A DNA stretch of 64,000 nucleotides from Aptenodytes patagonicus (taxonomy: Eukaryota > Chordata > Aves > Sphenisciformes > Spheniscidae), in contig NC_134970.1 in the NCBI RefSeq assembly GCF_965638725.1, positions 2,671,001 to 2,735,000 on the forward strand, read 5' to 3'. Below, in pieces: positions 14,527 through 59,809 of the stretch. The first letter of the stretch is position 1, and each line of letters opens with the position of its first letter. A model generated the notes under the pieces. The model did no database searches. It worked only from the letters and a program-made list of their open reading frames with translations, and was not told the origin of the DNA. Made by a program: the position numbers and the translations under genes.

Positions 14527-18193
<3,667 letters not shown>

Positions 18194-28712: not shown

Positions 28713-29098
28713 TCATAGAATCATAGAATCATTGAGGTTGGAAAAGACCTCTAAGATCATCGAGTCCAACCGTCGACCCACCACCACCACCCACTAAACC
28801 ATGTCCCTAAGCACCTCATCTATACGTCTTTTAAATACCCCCAGGGATGGGGACTCCACCACTTCCCTGGGCAGCCTCTTCCAATGTTTCACCACTCTTT
28901 CAGTAAAGACATTTTTCCTCACGTCCAATGTAAACCTCCCCTGGCACAACTTGAGGCCGTTTCCTCTCGTCCTGTCGCTTGTTACTTGGGAGAAGAGACC
29001 AACACCCCCCTCGCTACAACCTCCTTTCAGGGAGTTGTAGAGAGCGATGAGGTCTCCCCTCAGCCTCCTTTTCTCCAGGCTACACAAGTTGAACCGCA
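28713..29098 (-). mobile_element. CR1 LINE retrotransposon, 5'-truncated, minus orientation
   Basis: The plus strand begins with TCATAGAATCATAGAATC, the reverse complement of the CR1 3' terminal octamer repeats, and continues into the antisense 3' end of CR1. Read on the minus strand, the element encodes the C-terminal end of the CR1 ORF2 reverse transcriptase, with landmarks such as [24 protein letters not shown] and a terminal VFKRR...LRDMV, followed by its stop near 28794. The 5' end is lost at about 29098, the usual truncation for this family. The frame is uninterrupted across the remnant, suggesting a relatively young insertion. CR1 is the dominant LINE of birds and other reptiles, which supports the host assignment. 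Confidence 0.95.
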
Positions 29099-29099
29099 G

Positions 29100-29760
29100 C
29101 CCCCGCACGCGTCCCCGCCGAGCTGCGGCGCTCGGCAGCGAGAGCGCTGCACCGCAGCCCCCTCCCTCATCCCAGCGCTTGCAGAGACTGCAAAAACGAT
29201 CTCCAGCACCCGCCCGCCCGCAGCCACGTCTGGAAGGGGAGCAGCAGACCGAGGGGTAATTCCCTGCCGCTCGTGGTGAAACCAGAGAGGCCCCCGGGGC
29301 AGCAGAGGGGCGGGAGAGGCTTTTGCCCGCCCGGGAGCCGCCGGACCGGCCGGCTTCAGCCCATTTTAACATCGCTGCCGGCGCGTCCGCCGTGCGCGTG
29401 GGTTAACGACAGACCTCGGGCTCTCCCAGCTGAAGCAGGGCCAAGCCCTCCGGCGGTGCCGCCCTGCCTGACCCCCCCCCCCCCCCCCGCAGCACCGGCA
29501 GCCCCCCGCCCCCGGCACGGGCCCCCCCCCAGCCCCGGGCACAGCCGCGCCCCTGCGGCAGCCGGCGCCACGGCGCCACCTGCCGGAGCGCGGGGGGAGC
29601 GCGGGGGGAGCGCGCCCCCCCCGTTGTTATAACCACCTTTTTATAATTCTTTTTTTTTTTTTTTAAAAAAAAAAACCCCGATCGTGGGGTAGAAACACGG
29701 CCCTGGGGCAGCGGCACTTCTGCATGAAACGCGGCCCCGGTACCCGATAGCGCCAGGATG
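29100..29760. promoter_or_regulatory. Orphan CpG island next to the CR1 element
   Basis: Immediately beyond the truncated end of the CR1 copy the sequence becomes very GC- and CpG-rich (for example CGCACGCGTCCCCGCCGAGC near 29105), up to an abrupt change to T/A tracts at 29637-29682 and a short GC-rich tail to about 29760. It contains C runs (29472-29488) and repeated GAGCGCGGGGG units near 29585-29615. No recognised gene starts within 11 kb on either side. It could be the promoter of an unannotated non-coding transcript or a distal start of a neighbour; no conserved coding sequence is visible in it. Confidence 0.6.
29472..29488. repeat. C homopolymer in the orphan CpG island
   Basis: A run of 17 C bases, with more C/G runs in the following 140 bp. 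Length is likely to be variable and hard to assemble. Confidence 0.9.
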
Positions 29761-41147: not shown

Positions 41148-41562
41148 ATGAAAAGGCCAAAGAGATGCAGCCTCTGTAGCTTTTTCTGTTACTTTTGCTG
41201 CACTAGAAAGAAGCAACAAAGAGGACTCCCCTTCCCCCTTCAATTTACCAGCGCAGGGGGAGAGGGGACACGCAAGATGAGCAGTCCAGGGAGAAACAGG
41301 GATTTGGGAATGTTTAGTGCAGATGAGAGAAAGATCAAAGACTGAACCAGGGGCTCTTGCACCTCTTTGCTTATCGAGAATATTTGCACAGAGCAGCCCA
41401 GCCAGAGAGGGGAATTGCAGCTGCGCAGCACAGGATTAGCGTGATGTTGAGCTGTTGAGGTGACAACCTGGACCGGTGGTAGGGACCACAGGAGGAGGCA
41501 TGTCCAGCCCCCCTGGCCAGGGGCAGAGGAGCTGGTGCAGCGGTGGTCAGGGGCAGCGCTGA
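41148..41562 (+). promoter_or_regulatory. Upstream ORFs in the AVPR1B leader
   Basis: The first ATG after the inferred start site opens a 65-codon uORF (41148-41345). A minimal four-codon uORF follows (41444-41458), then a 20-codon one (41500-41562), all ending before the receptor ATG at 41661. Upstream ORFs in the V1b receptor mRNA leader are known to restrain its translation in mammals, so these could act the same way. A spliced leader would remove some of them. Confidence 0.5.
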
Positions 41563-41660
41563 CCCCGAGAGCTCAGCCCCGGGGAGGCAGGGAAGGGTTT
41601 AACAGGCCATCAGAGACGAGCATTACAGCTGCCTGTACTCCTGCAGAGCTTCCCAAAGGG

Positions 41661-43823
41661 ATGGAGCCGGGCTGGGGCTGGAACAGCACTCATTGCAGCC
41701 AGCCTGGGCACGGCCAGGGGCTGCTGAGCCCCCAGACCCTGGCAGGGGACCCCAACCTGACCCTCTTGCACAGCCGGGATGAGGAGCTGGCCAAGGCAGA
41801 GGTTGGGGTGCTGGCCACGATCCTGGCTATAGCAACTGTAGGCAACGTGGGGGTGCTGCTGGCAATGTACCGCCTGAGGAAGAAGATGAGCCGGATGCAT
41901 CTCTTCATCTTGCACCTGGGGCTGACTGACCTGGGTGTTGCGCTCTTCCAGGTGCTGCCACAGATGATCTGGGAGGTGACGTACCGCTTCTTGGGGCCAG
42001 ACCCACTCTGCAGGGCAGTCAAGTACCTGCAGGTGCTGAGCATGTTCGCCTCCACCTACATGCTCATCGTGATGACGCTGGACCGCTACATGGCCGTGTG
42101 CCACCCGCTGCGCACCCTGCAGCAGCCCAGCCGCCAGGCCTACGTGATGATCGGGGCTACATGGCTGCTCAGCTGCCTGCTCAGCCTGCCCCAGATCTTC
42201 ATCTTCTCCCTGCGGGAGGTGCGCCAGGGCTCAGGGGTGGTGGACTGCTGGGCAGACTTCAGGTACCCATGGGGAGCCCGAGCCTACATCACCTGGACCA
42301 CACTGTGCATCTTCATCCTGCCCGTCGGCATCCTCACCGTCTGCTACAGCCTCATCTGCTACGAGATCTGCAAGAACCTCAAGGGCAAGACCCAGAGCGC
42401 TGCCCCCAGCAGGGGGGGGCCTGCAGCAGCTGCCCCTCCTGCTCCCTGCTCCTCCGAGAAGAGCGGGCAATGCTCCAGCGGGCAGCCCTCGCGGGTGAGC
42501 AGCGTGCGGACCATCTCCCGTGCCAAGATCCGCACGGTGAAGATGACCTTTGTCATCGTGGTGGCCTACGTTGCCTGCTGGGCACCGTTTTTCAGCATGC
42601 AGATGTGGTCGGTGTGGGATGAGGATGCTCCTGATGATGGTGAGTAGCGGTGAGGATGCTGGGCTGCAGCCCACAGCAGGCACACAGCATGCCCATTGCA
42701 TTTTTAACAAATGAGCTGTCTTATTTTGTCATTTTAAAAATCACGGGGAAGGCTACAGATTTGTTCCCCAGTAGTATTTATAGAAAACATTTTGCAGAGT
42801 CAAATCATTGCTTTCACCAGAAAAACCACTGAAAAGCCATGGCTTCTGACCATCACCTGTAGGGACGTGTAAAGATGTTATGTGAACATCTTTGCCATGT
42901 GTGCTTCTTCCCTCATGTGGGAAATTGCTTCAGGAGCTGCTGTGTTTGATAGGTGGCTGCAGGGAGGGTTTTAATTGTGCCTGCTGCTCCCATCCTCGGC
43001 TCGGACTGCCTCGCGGAGCAGCCGTGCTGCTGGAGCAGGTCCTTCACGTGTAACACCAAGCGCCTGTAAGGCTTTTGCTGAGCCAGCTGCAGAGGTTTCA
43101 GAAGTGGATTTCTGATTTAATAGGTTGACTTTTTCCTGGAAATTTTCAGTAGCTCTCCTAGCCTGTTTGTGGGTAGAAGGAACTTTAGCCAAGATTGAAA
43201 GGCCTCTGGGAGATGCTTTGGCCAGCAAACAGGCTGAAGGAAGGTCCAAAAGCTGCTGGGTCTCATCTCCCAGCACATCCCCATTGCAGTATATCACCCA
43301 CCTGCAAACCTCAGCCAAGGGTAGAGCCTGGCTCTGCCTGCCATGCTGCAAACTCTCCTGCCCAAAGAAATGCCAGTCAGATGGGATGGGAATGGGACAA
43401 AGGACACATGCCCGAGCCAAAATGAGCCCCAAGGTCCTGCCCGTTGCATACTGGGACCCTGTCCAGAGCATGCCCAGCCTGGTGGATGTTTCAGCTCTCT
43501 CCCTTGCCTTCCCAGAGTCCACCAACGTGGCTTTCACGATCACCATGCTGCTGGCCAGCCTCAGCAGCTGCTGCAACCCCTGGATTTACATGTTCTTCAG
43601 CGGGCACCTGCTCCAGGATGTGGCACGCTGCCTGTCCTGCTGGGGTGGCCCCCGGCCCAGGCTGCGGAGACAGGCCTCCACCGGGAGCCTCTGCAGCAGA
43701 AAAACCACCATCCTGAGCCACAGCCACCACACCAGCCCTGCCAGCCTCCCCCTGCACGGGGGCAGCACCAAGGACTTCTACCCACCCTGCGAGGAGGTGA
43801 TAACTGAGTTGAGCACGCTCTAG
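41661..43823 (+). CDS. AVPR1B: AVPR1B, V1b vasopressin / vasotocin receptor (avian VT2), two coding exons
   Basis: A class A Gq-coupled receptor for arginine vasotocin/vasopressin, acting on pituitary corticotrophs to release ACTH. Coding exons 41661-42639 and 43516-43823 join (GAT GAT G | AG TCC) to 428 residues, close to human AVPR1B. The intron lies after TM6, as in other AVPR genes. Visible: N-glycosylation sites N8-S-T and N32-L-T; DEELAK before TM1; N62 (1.50); D90 (2.50); VLPQ in TM2; C117 and C196 as the loop disulfide; DRY at 141-143; W168 (4.50); P221 (5.50); CWAPFF with W307/P309 in TM6; QMWSVWDED in loop 3; and NPWIY in TM7. DCWADF and SRVSS...[14 protein letters not shown] are subfamily hallmarks. 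The third intracellular loop is Ala/Pro/Ser-rich, and the C-tail has a cysteine pair (SCW after CL) for palmitoylation. The ATG chosen is the first in-frame one. Confidence 0.97.
42640..43515 (+). other. AVPR1B: AVPR1B intron
   Basis: An 876-bp intron from GTGAGT to a CCTTCCCAG acceptor. Read-through from exon 1 meets a TAG within three codons (42645-42647), so intron retention would give a receptor truncated after TM6. The last 390 bp happen to be open in the exon 2 frame, but the peptide has no receptor-like features. Confidence 0.9.
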
Positions 43824-44740
43824 GCTGTGGATGTCCCCAGGCACATCCCTCCACTGGAGACAGCTGCCACCAGATGCAACACCACAAACGTTGTCACGCA
43901 GAGCTGTGTCTCTCCCCACCTAGTAGCATCTCATTTTGCAGGACTGGGTGCTTAACCCAGAAAGCATCACTGTCCATCTTGTCCTTGCATGCTTGCTACT
44001 GTGCACGCTGTGTCTGCTGTGTGCATCGGGGGAGACGGACAGGGCCCCACCAGCCGTAGCCCAACCGCAGCATCCACCTCCCTCGTACATTAGGAAGCCT
44101 CTTTCTGCCTGGCTGCTCTCCTCCAGGAACGCCTCACAACCCAGGTATCCGCTGGGGGATGCTGCACCAGCGCGTCTTCCTGGAGGGACTCCGGCTTTGG
44201 GTGTTTAACAAATGCCAGCAAAGCAGCCTAAGCACAGCAGGAGGCAACGTGGCTACATCTGCTCAAGAGCTCCCCGCAAGCAAGTTACTCATCTCCCATC
44301 CTCAGGGCTTTGCTGGCAGAGCAGCAAATGCAGACACAGCTTTCCCACACCCCGGGGCACAGCACACTCTCCCCCCTGCGCTGCATAGCATTGCCCTTTG
44401 CTGACAGGCAGCTCTGGAGCCAGACCCCCTGCCCACCTCCCCGGGGACAGGGCTGCAGCAAAAGCCACAGGGCAGAAGTGTCCTCTCCTGTTGTGCACAG
44501 CTGTCCCGCTACCGCACAGTGGCATTGCACTGCGCTGGTGCAAGCATCCAAAATGCAGCACTGACACCAAAGAGCTGCTCGGAGGAACCTCGGCTCAGCT
44601 CCAGCTTGCCCAGGCAGATCCTGCCTCCCTCCGTGCCCCGGCACTTTCCATCAGGTTTACTCACAGCCCCTAGTTGCTGTGCAGGGCTGCTCCGCACTGT
44701 TCAACAGCTGCTGCATCCCATTAAAGAGCTGCTCTCAAAT
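43824..44740 (+). other. AVPR1B: AVPR1B 3' untranslated region
   Basis: Non-coding sequence after the receptor stop. The first good poly(A) hexamer is ATTAAA at 44721-44726, giving a 3' UTR of about 0.9 kb. The end is inferred. Confidence 0.5.
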
Positions 44741-46980
44741 TGCTGCTGCTTTTGTCTTATTTAGCAGAGATCAGAGTGCTGAAACCACCCAGGGCTCGGA
44801 CATGGCTTCAGGGCACTTGGAAGCACAGAGGAGGGGCAGCCGGCAGCCAGGAACAAGCCATGGCCTTGCAGTCCCAGCCTGGCCCCTGCCCTTCTCCCTG
44901 CATGTTGTGGGTCTCCCAGAAGCTGTTTTGTTTAAGAAGAAAGCATGAGCGAGGCAGGCAAGAGCGTCCATTTGCTCTGGGAGTCAAGCTCAAAAGCTGC
45001 TGATGGAGAATGTACAAGTGCCCTAGAGAGCAAGGTACCGAATTCCCTGCAAGCAAGGTATGTTATTCTCTCTATTATCACATGCTAAATCTGTAAAAAT
45101 AAGACATTAAGAGTAAAGTATTTTGAAATCTTAAATTAATTTTCACCTTTTAATCACCAAGCATTTGAATCAGTTTTTCCAGAAACTCCCACTAGCTGGT
45201 TTTGACCTCATCTCCAGTTCCATAAACGCCTTTAGCAATGGTTCCCAGAGACTGGGTTTTTTGAACATTTTCCTTCATGTGCCCTTCAAATTGGGCCAGA
45301 TCTGCACAACAAAGTCATAAACCCAGTAGTGCCCGACCTCAGAGTCCTCCCCAGGATCAATACCAAATCAATCGTCGCACAACCTTTCATTAAAGCACAT
45401 TGCTGCTGAGCCGATTTGAACTGCACTTGGGGCAGCTCCATCCCTGATGAAGGGGGGCCGTACCAGGAGGCAGCGGCTCCATCAGCCTGGCAGAGCTCCC
45501 AGCTATTGCATGGTTCCCCTTCCCCAGCACTTTGAAAGTTTATTTCTTGAAAAATCATAGGTAACAAAGTGCAGAGTGATGGGAGGGAACTGGTCCCCAT
45601 TTGCAGCCGCGATTTGCTGCAGCAGAGCAAGGACAGCAAGCCCTAGCCACAGGCAGGGCTGGCCAGGCACTGACTCTCCGAGACCTGAGGAGCATGAAGG
45701 TGACCTGACAAATGTAATCACTGACAAGCAGGGGAAGCAGCACCTCTGAGAAGATAACAGCCTTCCCAGCACATTCAGTTCACAATCCCAAGCTTATCTC
45801 TGCAAGCTGAAGAGCCCCCAACTCAGTTTTGTTAGAGAAAATTGCAGTGCGCTACTCCAAGTCCCCTGGGAATTAAACCAATACTTAAGGAAAATGTGAA
45901 ACGTGGTGTCAGACCACAGGGGGGGGCAGTGGCATGTGCCCCAGCCCAGGGCACTGACACACAGCCCCCCCCACCAAAGCTCTGCTGGGTGCGGGCACCA
46001 CTTGGCTGGGGAGAGGCCAACTCCTGCACCCAAGGCATTTGGTGCAGGGACAAAGCAGGAAAAGCAAAAGGTGGGAGACAGGGAATATCATCCCTCCCCA
46101 CGAGACACAGAGGGATTTGACTTGCCTACGCTCACATGGAGACCTGTGGTCCAATCCTGTGCCCCTCACAGCCCAGAGGGACCAGCAGCCAGCCCAGATC
46201 CTCCAGCTGAGGAGGGGGGATATAAATCCCCTGGGAAGCCCTCAGCCGTTTGCCAGCTGGGCTGACGACTACGGCTTTCAGCTGGGGGAGGAAACTTCCT
46301 GGCGGGGCCACCCTCCTTCCCCAGCCCTGGCATCCCCCCGATGCCTGGCCAGGGGGTCAAGCTGCTCGTGCGGCCACCCCAGCCCCAGCGACAGCTCTGA
46401 GGGCAACGGGGACTTGGAAAGATTTTGAGCTTCAGAGGAAAAGGGGTGCAGGGGAGGGCAATGAATCAGGGCTTGTCGGGCAGCGAGGACAAAGCCGGTG
46501 GAGGAACGGTATTTAAAAGGATTTTATGACAGCGATCAGCAAAGAAAGCATGGTTCAGAGGAGTTGCCAGCCAGTTCGGATGGGTATTTTGAAGACAACT
46601 GCATTTCCCTTCCCTGAACTACATCCCATTTTGAGGGGCAGGGGGGGGAAGTTTCATTTGCTTTCATGAAATGAGAGAAAGGGCCATCACACAAAACTGG
46701 AGAGCACATTTCAGCCTGGGTAGGAGGAACGTTTCCCTGCGCCATCCCACGCTCAGCAGCCTTCAGGAACAGTGATGCATCTAAGTAAAATACCAAGCAA
46801 ATTGCATCGGCGGGTTAGAGTGTTACAAGGAATAAAAGCTGGCAGGTGTCAGCCCGTGCCCGGCGCTGACCGAGGCGAGGGGAAGGGGAAGCCCTGCTCG
46901 CGCGGCTGCCGGGGGCTTCGGGCATCTCCCCATCCCGGTGGTGGTCTGACCTGAAACCCCGCCAAGCAGCATCCCGGGAG
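44741..46980. other. Convergent intergenic space between AVPR1B and RHEX
   Basis: No coding exon recognised. It should contain the RHEX 3' UTR on the minus strand; the nearest AATAAA on that strand is the complement of 45539-45544, 1.4 kb past the stop codon. GC-rich ORFs here look like composition artefacts. Confidence 0.5.
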
Positions 46981-49706
46981 TCACAGCTTCACCTCGGTGT
47001 ACTCGATGGACTTGGATGCCACAGGGCTGGAGCAGGGCCAGAAATCCACGTTCCTCTTCTTTGGGTCCACGTTGACGTAGTCCTCCCTAGTCTTCATGTT
47101 CTCGTAGTCCCCAGGAGAGCCTGGCCCGCGGGCTTTCCCCGGGAAGACAAGGGACGTGTAATTGAGGTTTTCTTCTGAGCAAGGGCCCTGGAGAAGCAGA
47201 CACGAACCCCAGGTCAGGCACCAGCATCCACCCGGGGTGGCTTTGCCCTTGAACCCACACGAAGGCGTGCAGCCGTTCAAGGTGCCCAGGTTGTGCCCAG
47301 GGATCTCCCTGGCCCCTGGGAACGCTTCCCTCTAAACGGGGAACATTACGTATGGCAGGTGACAACCATCACCCCAGCCTCACTGCCGGTATTGCAGTAC
47401 GGTTCGATGCATTTGCCCCTCCGTTGCTACTCTTTGGGTCTCAAGCCGGGCAGAGGCCGTGCGGACACGGCGCCGGCACCCCCGCTGCTGTGGCTGTGGT
47501 TGCTTTTGGCAAAGGCTCTCTGCCCGCCGCCATACCTGCGGGCAGGAAGGGCTGCTGTCTGAGTCCTCCGAGGTCTCTGAAGACGTGTCGCTGCTCCCTT
47601 AAAAACAGGAAACATTACCACCTCGATCGCTACTTGGGGGGTTAAAGGAAAAAAATAATTAGGGGGAAAACGCAAATGCACTCAAGGGTGAAAACTGAAA
47701 ATCCAAAAAGCATCAGTGTGATCCCTCCCCTCGTCATCCCCCTGCCCGTGGGGAAAGCCCAGAGGGGGGCAACTGGAATTGCGAGCGGCTGTTGCGCCTG
47801 CCCTTTGCCCGGTCGCTTGCTCCCTCTTCCACCCCAAGGCCAGCAGGTGGGGGTCTTCACAGCCGGTTAAGGAAGAGAGTATTGCACACGTGTAATACAT
47901 TTATATTCATGTGCCAGGACAAAACCCCATTGCTGTAGGATCCCCCCCTTACCCGTGTAGACTGGTCTTTGCACCCCTTCCCCTCCGGCTGAAGAGGTCG
48001 GAGGCTGTTGGGGCTGTGCTGCAGGGCTGCTGCTCGCCTGCTTGCCGCAGGAATGGCTGGCTGCAACAGAGAGGCGAATTAGCTCCCTGCTCCGGCCCGA
48101 GATGCCGGCTGTGTCCGATGCACCCCCACGCACCGTGCCACACGGACCCCCACCCGCCCCCCGAGCCCCAGCACTGCCCCACAGCAAAGCCAGTTCAGCG
48201 CAAGCCGCTGGCACGGCAATAATTATTATTATGTATTGGAGCAGGCACATATCTGTCAATTCAATTACTGAGATGATTAAGTGCGTGCCCTGTTCTCCCA
48301 CGATGAAAGATTCCAGTGTTAAATCACGCCATCAGGGCCTCTTCCCGTGCAAGTTTGAAATGAGTTTGACCCACGGGGCCAAGCAGAGCTTGTTTATGTA
48401 CAAATGTGGGCAGCAGTTTTGCGTGAAAGATTTTCCTGCTGGAAATTGTAGCGTCATCTGAATTAATATTTCGCAAATTGATTCCGATGGTAATTTTTCC
48501 ACCACTTTACTAAGAAGAGCAATAAAAGAAAATGTTTTTGAAACAACAAAAGACTGTATAACCCTATCCGATACTGCCCACACCACTTATAGCTGCTGGC
48601 AGAGCGGCTGTCGGGGCAGCCTCCCCCGGCCGCAGCCTGGCCCCCCAGCACAGCACAGCGATGCTGGTGGATAATCCCTGCCCTGCCCCGTTCCCATCCC
48701 ACGCCGGTGCCTGGCCCACCCGGGGGTCCGGCGGGTCCCTGGGGGGGCCCGGCTCCCGTGCTCGCCCCGTGTGGGCTCCGCAGCGGCACCGGTCACTCCC
48801 CCGAGCGTCAGCGAGAATCAGACCCAGAACAAGGAGTCGGTTGTGCTTTACAAACCGGGGGATGTTGAAGCTTTGGGCAAATGACTTTCACTCTCTGAAC
48901 TGGACGATTGCGAGAAAGAATGAGGAACACAGCAGGTGAAGCCGACAAGACAGTAAATTACCTATTTTCCTGCTGAGCATGATGTAAAGTGTCACCAAGA
49001 GGAGAGTGTATAGGATCAAGGTGACAGCTGAGATGGCAACAAGCACCCACCTGAACAAGAGAAAAATATTTTCTCTAAGTGAAAGAAATAACCAAATTAT
49101 TTTAAATCTTTCAGGTACTGTTTGGCTGGCATTGCTTCAAAGCATGTTTTAGACCAAGGTTTGCTGGTACAGTTTTTGGTTTTGCTTTTTGTCTTTAAGG
49201 CAATGTGCCCAAAAATCTGGGGCTTCATTTTCAAAAATGACTAGTGCTCCTTGCGCTTCATTTTTGGGTGCCCGTCCTAAGAAGGGTTTTCGAAAGCCTC
49301 ATTGCCAGCGGGGGGGGGTGCGCAGTGCTTGCTGGAAGAGAGAAGTTACAAATATGGCTCCTGCCAAAATCACAAGCCCTTTCTGAGACTCGCGCCTGTG
49401 TGTCTGCCAAACGCGGCCATCCAGTGACAACGCGCAATTGCCCCCAGCGCAGCAAAATGCAGGCACGGTGTCGCCAGCAACGGGGGCTGCGGCATCCCCG
49501 TGCTCTGCCGCTGCTCCCGGACCCACGGCACAGCATCCCCACAGCCAGAGCCCGGCCAAGCGAGGACAGAGAAACCGAGCAGAAAGGTGCCCCGTAGCAG
49601 CAGTTATCCTTCCATCTTAGAGCATCTCCCTCGCCGCAGGAGGGCTGCAAAGGGCTACCCGTGGCTCTAGCCCGGGCCGCTGTACTCACCATTCACAAGT
49701 GCTCAT
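46981..49706 (-). CDS. RHEX: RHEX-like single-pass adaptor (regulator of hemoglobinization and erythroid expansion; C1orf186 homologue), five coding exons
   Basis: Minus-strand exons 49690-49706, 48962-49050, 47953-48060, 47536-47597 and 46981-47187 join through GT-AG introns in consistent phases to 161 codons (160 residues; human RHEX is about 172). Residues 1-6 are extracellular, 7-31 form one hydrophobic membrane span, then SRK marks the cytoplasmic side. A Ser/Pro/Gln-rich linker and an acidic Ser-rich exon (SSETSEDSDSS, 77-87) follow. The last exon carries four tyrosine motifs: NYTSLVF (Y102), DYENM (Y120), DYVNV (Y129) and EYTEV (Y155). Their order and spacing match the human tail (DYTQVVF, DYENI, DYVNV, EYDQV) as I recall it. 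YxN motifs are Grb2 SH2 sites; human RHEX binds GRB2 and supports EPO receptor signalling in erythroid progenitors. Its place between AVPR1B and CTSE is that of human RHEX. The membrane exon is less conserved, so orthology rests on tail, exon layout and synteny. Confidence 0.88.
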
Positions 49707-52700
49707 CCTCCCCGCGAGGCGTCTCGGCGGTCGGTGAAGCGCTGGAGGTCTCGGCGGGGACAGAGAGAGGCAGCTAGCCCTGGTGGCAATGAACCAAAAT
49801 GGTCCCATTGAGCTTCACACTGCTCCACATCCACTGAAGATCAGGCTCACCGCTTGAAAGCAGTGGTCTGGCATCGCAGACGTAAAATAAAGGTATCCAG
49901 CCTTCCCTCTGCGCGAGGCTCTTACTGTATGTGCGATTCCTTCTCGTACGCACCCCTTACACGGCCACTGACTCTCCCTGCCATTATCATCGAGCTTAAT
50001 GGTTTTATACACTGGTCATATCTGATACTTGACTGGAGCTTCTGGGCTCCACCGTGGCGCTGATAATAACAAGAACCGAAATTTATTCTTCTTGCGTTCT
50101 AACTGCTCTTGCGTTTCTTTTTTTTTTTAAATCCACAAAAAATATTTGATAACTATAACCTGGGGAAAAAAAAAACAACATAGAAGAAAGTAACCAAAAG
50201 AAGGCCACGGGTTTGGTGTCAGGCTCTTGCATCAGTCAAGATCCAGCCAGAAAAGTCCGAGGCCCTTCAACAGCTCTGCATTTGAAACACCTCGGATTTA
50301 ATTTTAGATGAGCGCTTAAATCCTGTTGAAGTTAAGGGGACTTAAGGGGCAGAATTAGAAAACACATACGCCTGAACTGGACCCCTTGGCTTGGGACTTT
50401 TGGCCATAATATTCAAGAGATCTATAATAAAGGACGACAATCAGGGGCATTCATTTTGTGAGCTTTCACTTGCAAAAAAGCACTTTAAATTTTCACTCAA
50501 TTCCTATATACTTACTGTTTATAAATAGCTAACAGGGAGGTTATCTTCAACTAAAGCTTTTATATGATGATTAAAGGAGCCATAATAATATGGTTGATAG
50601 ACTGATAGATAGATTGATAGTGAGAGCAAAGGCATTATCCATCCTATGGATCAGATTCTATAATTTCCTCTATGACACATTTCTAAGAGTAATTCATCAA
50701 AAGCTTTTCCAAGAGCCTCACCAATCTCCTGCGAAATTCCACTTACCCAAACAGTCTGGCAACTGCCAAGCTAAAAGTCCATTTCTTGCTGGAATTTTCC
50801 CCCTCCCTTATTGAACTGATCTGTCCCCAAATATCCTTCTCAAATGGCTGTCATTCTTAAATGGCTCATTTCCTATTGTGGGGCAAGAGATGCTGCTGCA
50901 GCAGATAACAATCTGAAAAATGAGCTGTTCAAAAGGAAATTGCAAAATAAGACCCAAATCCAAATATCAGTAGCAGGCAGCTTCTTTGCTGAGATGGGGT
51001 ATGGCGAGATTAAAGAGGTGATACACATAGGCGTATTGAAATAATCTATGTTGAAGATAACAGCTAGTAAGATGCTGGCAGCACATGTACTTTTTTGATG
51101 TATCAGGTAACTCGCTGTGAGCCTCCCTCCCTCCAGCCCCCAGGATATTAACCCTTTCTCAAGCAAGATGCCCTTTTGAAATCAAGGCTTGTAAAGAGCC
51201 CCTGCACGGCTGGTTACCGACTAGTGAATTCAGGACATCTACGCTCAATCTAAAGGTAAGCAAAATCATGGGAACGCCTCAAATTATTTTAATCCCATTT
51301 GAGTCGGGCCTTGCGGCCCCAAGTTAAGGCTAAAGCTCAGGCTGGCAGTGGCGCATGCCTGCAGGCATCCCTCGGACGCGGACACCAAACCCAGCTCTTG
51401 TCCTGATGTACGACCCCTCTGCTTTCCAAGGCATTGCGTGCAACGGCCAGTGGAGTGCAATATCCAGTAGCGTTTTACCTGGGCGACCAGAGCTTTCCGC
51501 ACCTTCCCTTTCCCGCAGGCCGGGGGCAGCTGGGGCCTTGGAGCGAGCAGGAATTAAGGACCTTTCAGCAGCATTTTCGGTGGCCGTGCAGCCGCAGGGG
51601 TCCAGCGGTGCAGAAGCGCTCGCCGGCTCGGTGCCGGATGCGGTCTCGCTCTACCCCCATGGCAATGGCAGGAACGAGCCCACACGAAGTTCCATGACAC
51701 TCCCCCTCTGTCAACTGGCCCATTTAAATATATCTGGGTGTTTCTCTGCTGTTCTGCAGCCGCTTCTGCTCTGGGGCTGGGACACTGTATCCCCCCGGGC
51801 AGTTCTCCCTCTTGCTCCATCTTCCAGCAGCTTTGTGCTAAAATGCAGCTGAGCTTTGGTGGAACAGAGCGGTCCCCGAGGGCAGAGAGCTCTGCCCAGC
51901 AGCAACGGAGCTGGCTCAGTGCTGAGCAATTCAGCTGCCACCCAAAAATTGCTCTGGGTGCTTCCAGGTCTTCTATAGAGGTAAAACATTTTAAATCATA
52001 AGGGACGTGGTCCCAGAGCCTGGCATGGCTTGGTGTCTGCTGGGGGTGAACGGGTCTCCACCCGACCACTTTCTGGAAAAATTTTCTGGTCAGTAGTAAC
52101 TTGCGGTGTCACTCAAAAACAGCGGGGTGCAAACGGCAGACTGGCAGACCCACTCCCGTCGGTTCGCAGCAGATTTGGGGAGCGCTGGGCCACTGCTCCA
52201 TAGGAACTGATTTTGCAGCTCTCACACTGAGACAGCGTTCTGGTGCTGGAGATGCCCTGCAGCAGCCCGGCCTCTCTTGTGCTTCTTCCCTGGCAGGAGA
52301 TGGGCAGGGAGCGAGGGACCCCCCTTCTCACGGGGTCCCTGACTCCTGGGGACGGTGCCCGCTGGTGTTTAAACATCTCCATCACCCCCACGCTCCTGTA
52401 GCAATGCTGTCCTGGGGAAATAACACCCTAGCATCTCAGCGAATCCCCCCAGACTTCCTAAAGGCAAAGAGAAGACCGGCTCCTGAGAAACTCTACGTAC
52501 CCTCAGCTGCCAGGCGCCGTCGGAGTTCACCCCCAGGAGCTGCATTGCGAGTTGGGGTCCCCTGCCAGGTCCCCGTCGTGGGTGAGTTGCTGCCCTCGTT
52601 TCCCCACCATCCCCTGGGACCGCAGGGACCACGACATCCATCACCTCCATCACAGGGGGATTTTAGTCCTGCTTTTCCCACAGCTTCTGTGCCACGGGTA

Positions 52701-55481: not shown

Positions 55482-59809
<4,328 letters not shown>

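What the first reader, a model, noticed from the sequence alone, without database searches (positions are those of the whole stretch)
46981..49706. Intact RHEX-type adaptor in a bird-like genome
The five-exon minus-strand model gives a 160-residue single-pass protein whose tail keeps all four tyrosine motifs of human RHEX in the same order (YTxxVF-like, DYENM, DYVNV, EYTEV). RHEX was described in human erythroid cells and, as I recall, has no mouse counterpart, so preservation here would show that it is an old amniote gene lost in some mammals. The extracellular part is reduced to about six residues, making it a nearly pure cytoplasmic docking tail. Bird red cells keep their nuclei, which makes an EPO-receptor adaptor there worth testing.
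Basis: partly seen in the sequence, partly recalled or inferred. Interest (0 to 1): 0.7.

Follow-up and report, generated by a model that had tools for sequence, protein, structure and literature searches.

The report
Bird version of blood adaptor RHEX
A bird-like genome carries an intact copy of RHEX, a small membrane protein that relays growth signals in human blood cells and that papers describe as absent from lower vertebrates, so the gene looks old rather than new.

Summary
Confirmed. The minus-strand model at 46981-49706 is an intact five-exon gene, all four introns GT..AG, coding for 160 residues. It matches Pfam's RHEX family over nearly the whole model (E 1.3e-29, 104.2 bits against a cut-off of 27). 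It lies between a V1-type vasopressin receptor gene and cathepsin E, the order I recall for human AVPR1B-RHEX-CTSE. All 4 matches in its own 1.35-Gb genome are this gene's exons. [quoted passage not shown] this locus contradicts 'lower vertebrates'. The two EPO-regulated human tyrosines (Y132, Y141) have counterparts (Y120, Y129) in Grb2-type pYxN motifs. The short extracellular part is not a bird reduction: recalled human RHEX has about nine residues there. A role in bird red cells is untested. RHEX also marks gamma-delta T cells in pig, dog and goat and restrains KIT in human mast cells, so the ancestral receptor is open. It is a new member of a known family; bird database entries may already exist, which I could not check.

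The parts
49690..49706 (-). RHEX exon 1 (coding part, 17 nt): MSTCE plus two bases of W6
   Evidence: A at -3 of the ATG, GTGAGT donor; not found by the homology search (too short)
48962..49050 (-). RHEX exon 2: single membrane-spanning segment
   Evidence: Kyte-Doolittle peak 2.53 over residues 8-26; matched (3.1e-7)
48978..49049 (-). Membrane segment, about residues 7-30 (limits by eye)
   Evidence: hydropathy; codon arithmetic from the exon coordinates
47953..48060 (-). RHEX exon 3: juxtamembrane low-complexity tail with Y70
   Evidence: matched (2.9e-16)
47536..47597 (-). RHEX exon 4: Ser/Asp/Glu-rich linker
   Evidence: matched (1.5e-5, with intron sequence and one stop read through)
46981..47187 (-). 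RHEX exon 5: signalling tail with Y102, Y120, Y129, Y155 and the stop codon
   Evidence: matched (2.9e-41)
47158..47160 (-). Y102 codon (LNYTSLVF, ITIM-like)
   Evidence: motif name recalled; codon arithmetic
47104..47106 (-). Y120 codon (DYENM, Grb2-type pYxN), counterpart of human Y132
   Evidence: PMC10177086 for human Y132; codon arithmetic
47077..47079 (-). Y129 codon (DYVNV, Grb2-type pYxN), counterpart of human Y141
   Evidence: PMC10177086 for human Y141; codon arithmetic
46999..47001 (-). Y155 codon (IEYTEV, ITIM-like)
   Evidence: motif name recalled; codon arithmetic
41451..42644 (+). Neighbour: open frame holding a V1-type vasopressin/vasotocin receptor exon (AVPR1B by position)
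   Evidence: PF00001, 2.5e-46; best PDB hit V1a receptor, 6.2e-104
56197..59809 (+). Neighbour: cathepsin E gene (CTSE), from the propeptide exon to the stop; limits read by eye, signal-peptide exon not located
   Evidence: A1 propeptide 1.7e-7; Asp 1.4e-21 and 2.1e-9; best PDB hit cathepsin E, 2.3e-31; Asp 1e-17; Asp C-terminal end 1.6e-13; sequence
18017..18190 (+). Neighbour: open frame holding a FAM72-type exon (YPEH2ZP)
   Evidence: PF14976, 1.7e-7

Best explanation
This is the bird orthologue of RHEX (C1orf186). Shown: an intact five-exon gene, a single membrane segment with almost nothing outside the cell, and a tail of about 125 residues that matches the RHEX family end to end, in what I recall as the RHEX gene neighbourhood. 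Inferred: a receptor-bound tyrosine kinase phosphorylates the tail, and Y120 (pYENM) and Y129 (pYVNV) recruit the SH2 domain of Grb2. That either boosts Ras/MAPK output, as reported for EPO in human erythroid cells, or holds Grb2 away from the receptor, as proposed for KIT in human mast cells. Y102 and Y155 fit the ITIM pattern and may add a phosphatase-recruiting brake (speculative). Which receptor and which blood cell use it in birds is unknown. The confidence given is for the identity; for Grb2 docking as the molecular mechanism I would say about 0.65.
For: Pfam PF15763 E 1.3e-29, 104.2 bits against cut-off 27, residues 6-159 to profile 2-166 of 167. Open frame with all four introns GT..AG. 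Neighbours: V1-type vasopressin receptor, cathepsin E and FAM72-type exon. All 4 matches at E <= 0.001 in its own genome are exons of this gene. A human RHEX sequence typed from recall carries the expected residue at all 5 phosphosites named in the passages of PMC10177086 that I saw (S56, S80, S128, Y132, Y141) and aligns at 55 identities of 152 aligned residues, z 26.4 against 500 shuffles; human Y84, Y113, Y132, Y141 and Y167 each align with a tail tyrosine. Spacing Y120-Y129 equals Y132-Y141. PMC10177086 passages: Y132 and Y141 rise with EPO and SCF; Grb2 binds RHEX in erythroblasts.
Against: No RNA, protein or phosphorylation data for this gene. Exon 1 is only weakly supported. A search for the EPO-receptor ligand-binding domain gave 9 matches on three contigs. 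Growth-hormone receptor was not among the 3 either, and 6 were not typed, so this cannot show that EPOR is missing. [quoted passage not shown]
Confidence: 0.93

Rival explanations
1. The gene is RHEX (so this sits inside the best explanation), but its old job is in lymphoid or mast cells (gamma-delta T-cell or KIT signalling), and EPO-receptor coupling is a later or human-specific use.
For: RHEX marks gamma-delta T cells in pig (PMC12995613 passage; PMC8261551 table), dog (PMC12756145 passages) and goat (PMC13154703 passages); in human mast cells it restrains KIT signalling (PMC10177086 passages). Chicken erythroid progenitors were described as not EPO-dependent (PMC4539667 passage).
Against: No bird expression data were available. 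Human erythroid function is reported (cited in PMC10177086). GATA-type sites upstream of exon 1 (10 against a shuffled mean of 4.3, 0 of 300 shuffles reach 10) would fit erythroid, mast or T-cell GATA factors alike, and 4 of the 10 sit in one GATA-like short repeat.
Confidence: 0.45
2. A decayed or unexpressed relic of RHEX.
For: I have no expression evidence at all; no AATAAA lies within 1.4 kb downstream of the stop.
Against: Intact frame and splice sites; full-length family match; tail tyrosines and DYEN/DYVNV kept across a bird-mammal split given as 310 million years in PMC4628740 (passage).
Confidence: 0.03
3. Another transmembrane adaptor family (LAX1, SIT1, LAT or NTAL type) rather than RHEX.
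For: Same architecture: tiny outside part, one membrane segment, tail with Grb2-type tyrosines (architecture of those families recalled).
Against: Three Pfam families are listed up to E 10 and only RHEX passes its cut-off; the gene neighbourhood is that recalled for RHEX.
Confidence: 0.01

Closest known systems
RHEX (C1orf186), human; Pfam PF15763
   Same: Single membrane segment, short outside end, five aligned tail tyrosines including both EPO/SCF-regulated ones, neighbourhood AVPR1B-RHEX-CTSE (human order recalled).
   Different: 55 of 152 aligned residues identical to the recalled human protein; 160 instead of 172 residues; human Y155 is replaced by proline (FWYF to FWPC); C-terminal motif IEYTEV instead of AEYDQV.
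LAX1 / SIT1 / LAT / NTAL transmembrane adaptors (recalled)
   Same: Works like them: membrane-anchored phosphotyrosine docking tail for Grb2 (inferred here).
   Different: Not among the families listed; not filed as a member.
C1ORF150 / HGAL (PMC11518702, passages)
   Same: C1ORF150 is another EPOR- and KIT-modulated adaptor from the same laboratory, also described as missing in mice, rats and lower vertebrates.
   Different: PMC11518702 discusses predicted myristoyl switches for membrane localisation of these adaptors; not compared by sequence here.

Membership tests
RHEX (PF15763) | Match to the family profile above its curated cut-off over its length | tested here: met
   104.2 bits against 27; profile positions 2-166 of 167
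RHEX (PF15763) | Single-pass membrane segment next to the N-terminus | tested here: met
   Kyte-Doolittle peak 2.53 at residues 8-26
RHEX (PF15763) | Tyrosines equivalent to human Y132 and Y141 in Grb2-type motifs | tested here: met
   Y120 (YENM) and Y129 (YVNV), same spacing of nine (human positions from PMC10177086)
RHEX (PF15763) | Genomic place between AVPR1B and CTSE | tested here: met
   for the neighbours; the human order is recalled. V1a and V1b receptors were not told apart by sequence
RHEX (PF15763) | EPO- or SCF-induced tyrosine phosphorylation and Grb2 binding | not testable with these tools
   Needs cells; described for human in passages of PMC10177086
LAX1 / SIT1-type adaptors | Match to their family profiles | tested here: not met
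   No such family among the three listed up to E 10; that Pfam holds models for them is recalled, and the filters drop most matches above about 0.1

The most novel reading that the evidence does not exclude
RHEX is an ancestral amniote two-way switch: two Grb2 sites flanked by two ITIM-like sites (LNYTSL, IEYTEV), serving KIT and gamma-delta T-cell signalling before mammals, with EPO-receptor use added later and the whole gene lost in mouse and rat. Birds would then be the missing in vivo model for a gene that a paper calls impossible to explore in vivo using rodents.
Probability: 0.3. Interest if true: 0.6.

Novelty: new member of a known kind. Interest (0 to 1): 0.42.

Why it matters
[quoted passage not shown] An intact orthologue in a bird-like genome, in the same neighbourhood, would make the gene at least as old as the bird-mammal ancestor, so its absence in mouse and rat would be a loss. 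Chick embryos would then be a practical in vivo model, and the open question of which receptor RHEX originally served becomes testable.

Tried and rejected
Own-genome searches with the RHEX family (PF15763, 12 tries) and the EPO/TPO family (PF00758, 6 tries) did not complete, so EPO presence and RHEX relatives more distant than could find are untested. Its built-in control of 14 well-known genomes rang in 0.

GATA-type sites (WGATAR) upstream of exon 1: 10 in 2 kb against a shuffled mean of 4.3 (0 of 300 dinucleotide shuffles reach 10); in the nearer 1 kb, 8 against 2.9 (2 of 300). Four of the 10 sit in one GATA-like short repeat at 50595-50620, and 2 of the 32 fixed 2-kb tiles of the window also hold 10, neither of them this stretch, so I give this little weight. 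One E-box/GATA composite and no CACCC-type site were found there.

The nearest AATAAA on the minus strand after the stop is at 45544, about 1.4 kb away (43000-46980 scanned). ARAGORN and Rfam found nothing in the window. No structure prediction was run: the product is spliced, and I expect most of it to be disordered.

Of the nine open frames, five matched a family and four did not; of the five, one matched. The last cathepsin E exon failed because I had the frame off by one, shifted by one base, matched (1.6e-13).

Papers, for bird RHEX: 20 listed of 20; 30 of 36; 2 of 2; 40 of 150, many about robots; 5 of 15,461, too broad to help; none; none. Nothing listed is about bird RHEX by title or abstract start; the two papers (super-enhancers, asparaginase) were not opened, and the unlisted papers were not seen. 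The discovery paper (10.1084/jem.20130624, DOI recalled) is not held; its claims are taken from papers that cite it.

Full report
What is there. Five minus-strand exons (49706-49690, 49050-48962, 48060-47953, 47597-47536, 47187-46981) join into 483 nt coding for 160 residues, all four introns GT..AG. GC at codon positions one to three is 0.49, 0.52 and 0.71. The product has one strongly hydrophobic segment (residues 8-26 at the peak) after about six residues, then a tail of about 125 residues.

What it is. [quoted passage not shown] the two other families up to E 10 are below their cut-offs. No PDB sequence matches better than E 0.84. In the window's own genome (1,352,360,349 bases, 618 contigs; the window is C22:2671001-2735000) all 4 matches to the protein at E <= 0.001 are its exons 5, 3, 2 and 4; exon 1 is too short to be found.

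Neighbourhood. A V1-type vasopressin/vasotocin receptor exon lies at 41451-42644 + (best PDB match V1a receptor, 6.2e-104; I did not tell V1a from V1b by sequence, so AVPR1B rests on position). Cathepsin E lies at about 56197-59809 + (best PDB match cathepsin E at 2.3e-31, the next, cathepsin D, at 1.8e-20). A FAM72-type exon lies at 18017-18190 +. The order FAM72, AVPR1B, RHEX, CTSE is what I recall for human 1q32; I could not fetch the human region.

Comparison with human. It has the right residue at all five phosphosites named in the passages of PMC10177086 that I saw (S56, S80, S128, Y132, Y141), which supports but does not prove the recall. It aligns with the window protein at 55 identities of 152 aligned residues with 18 gap positions (z 26.4 against 500 shuffles; tail alone 27 of 62, z 23.5). 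Human Y84, Y113, Y132, Y141 and Y167 align with Y70, Y102, Y120, Y129 and Y155; human Y155 has no counterpart. The human part before the membrane is also about nine residues, so the short outside end looks like a family feature, not a reduction.

What print says. [quoted passage not shown] The window contradicts the lower-vertebrate part. A primate-only reading is also contradicted by pig, dog and goat papers that report RHEX transcripts, as a gamma-delta T-cell marker (PMC12995613, PMC8261551, PMC12756145, PMC13154703; passages only). I found no paper on bird RHEX among those listed (limits in Tried and rejected). Gene databases were not available and may already list bird RHEX.

How it most likely works. 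Y120 (YENM) and Y129 (YVNV) are textbook Grb2 SH2 sites (pYxN, recalled). Their human counterparts are the EPO- and SCF-regulated sites, and Grb2 binding to RHEX is reported in erythroblasts (PMC10177086). In mast cells the same paper describes RHEX as a repressor of ERK1/2 and p38, without effect on STAT5, and suggests that it draws Grb2 away from KIT. Y102 (LNYTSL) and Y155 (IEYTEV) fit the ITIM pattern [SIVL]xYxx[ILV] (recalled); in recalled human only the first does (VDYTQV). I did not test how often two of five tail tyrosines would fit by chance, so a phosphatase role is speculation.

Bird context. [quoted passage not shown] My search for the EPO-receptor ligand-binding domain gave 9 matches on three contigs; the three typed were thrombopoietin receptor (C5) and prolactin receptor (C33 and C34). 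This says nothing firm about EPOR. The EPO search did not complete.

No tool named the species.

Verdict. A real, intact RHEX orthologue; ordinary as a gene, of moderate interest because it contradicts a published statement and opens an avian model. Erythroid function in birds is a hypothesis, with gamma-delta T-cell or mast-cell use as a serious rival.

Noticed in passing
window 41451-42644 +, 56197-59809 +, 18017-18190 +: Neighbour genes: V1-type vasopressin receptor, cathepsin E, FAM72-type exon, in the order recalled for human 1q32.
   Followed up: partly
window 49808 (minus strand): An upstream in-frame ATG (T at -3), with no stop before the predicted start, would give a 194-residue form with about 40 outside residues.
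   Followed up: partly
window 49984-51060: Ten WGATAR sites in the 2 kb upstream of RHEX exon 1 against a shuffled mean of 4.3; four sit in a short GATA-like repeat.
   Followed up: partly
window 28797-29402 -: Open frame that resembles the C-terminal end of an avian CR1 retroelement (by eye, recalled); no Pfam match.
   Followed up: no
L010 (G000:C33) and L011 (G000:C34): Prolactin-receptor ligand-binding exons on two contigs, with nearly equal PDB scores (3.3e-20 and 3.2e-20); could be Z and W copies, haplotypes or a duplication.
   Followed up: no
L009 2-574: Open frame near a receptor-domain match on C33 that looks by eye like a retroviral integrase piece; left as seen.
   Followed up: no
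window 14531-14618: Perfect GGACG and GGAGC pentamer arrays in the GC-rich 14-16 kb stretch.
   Followed up: no
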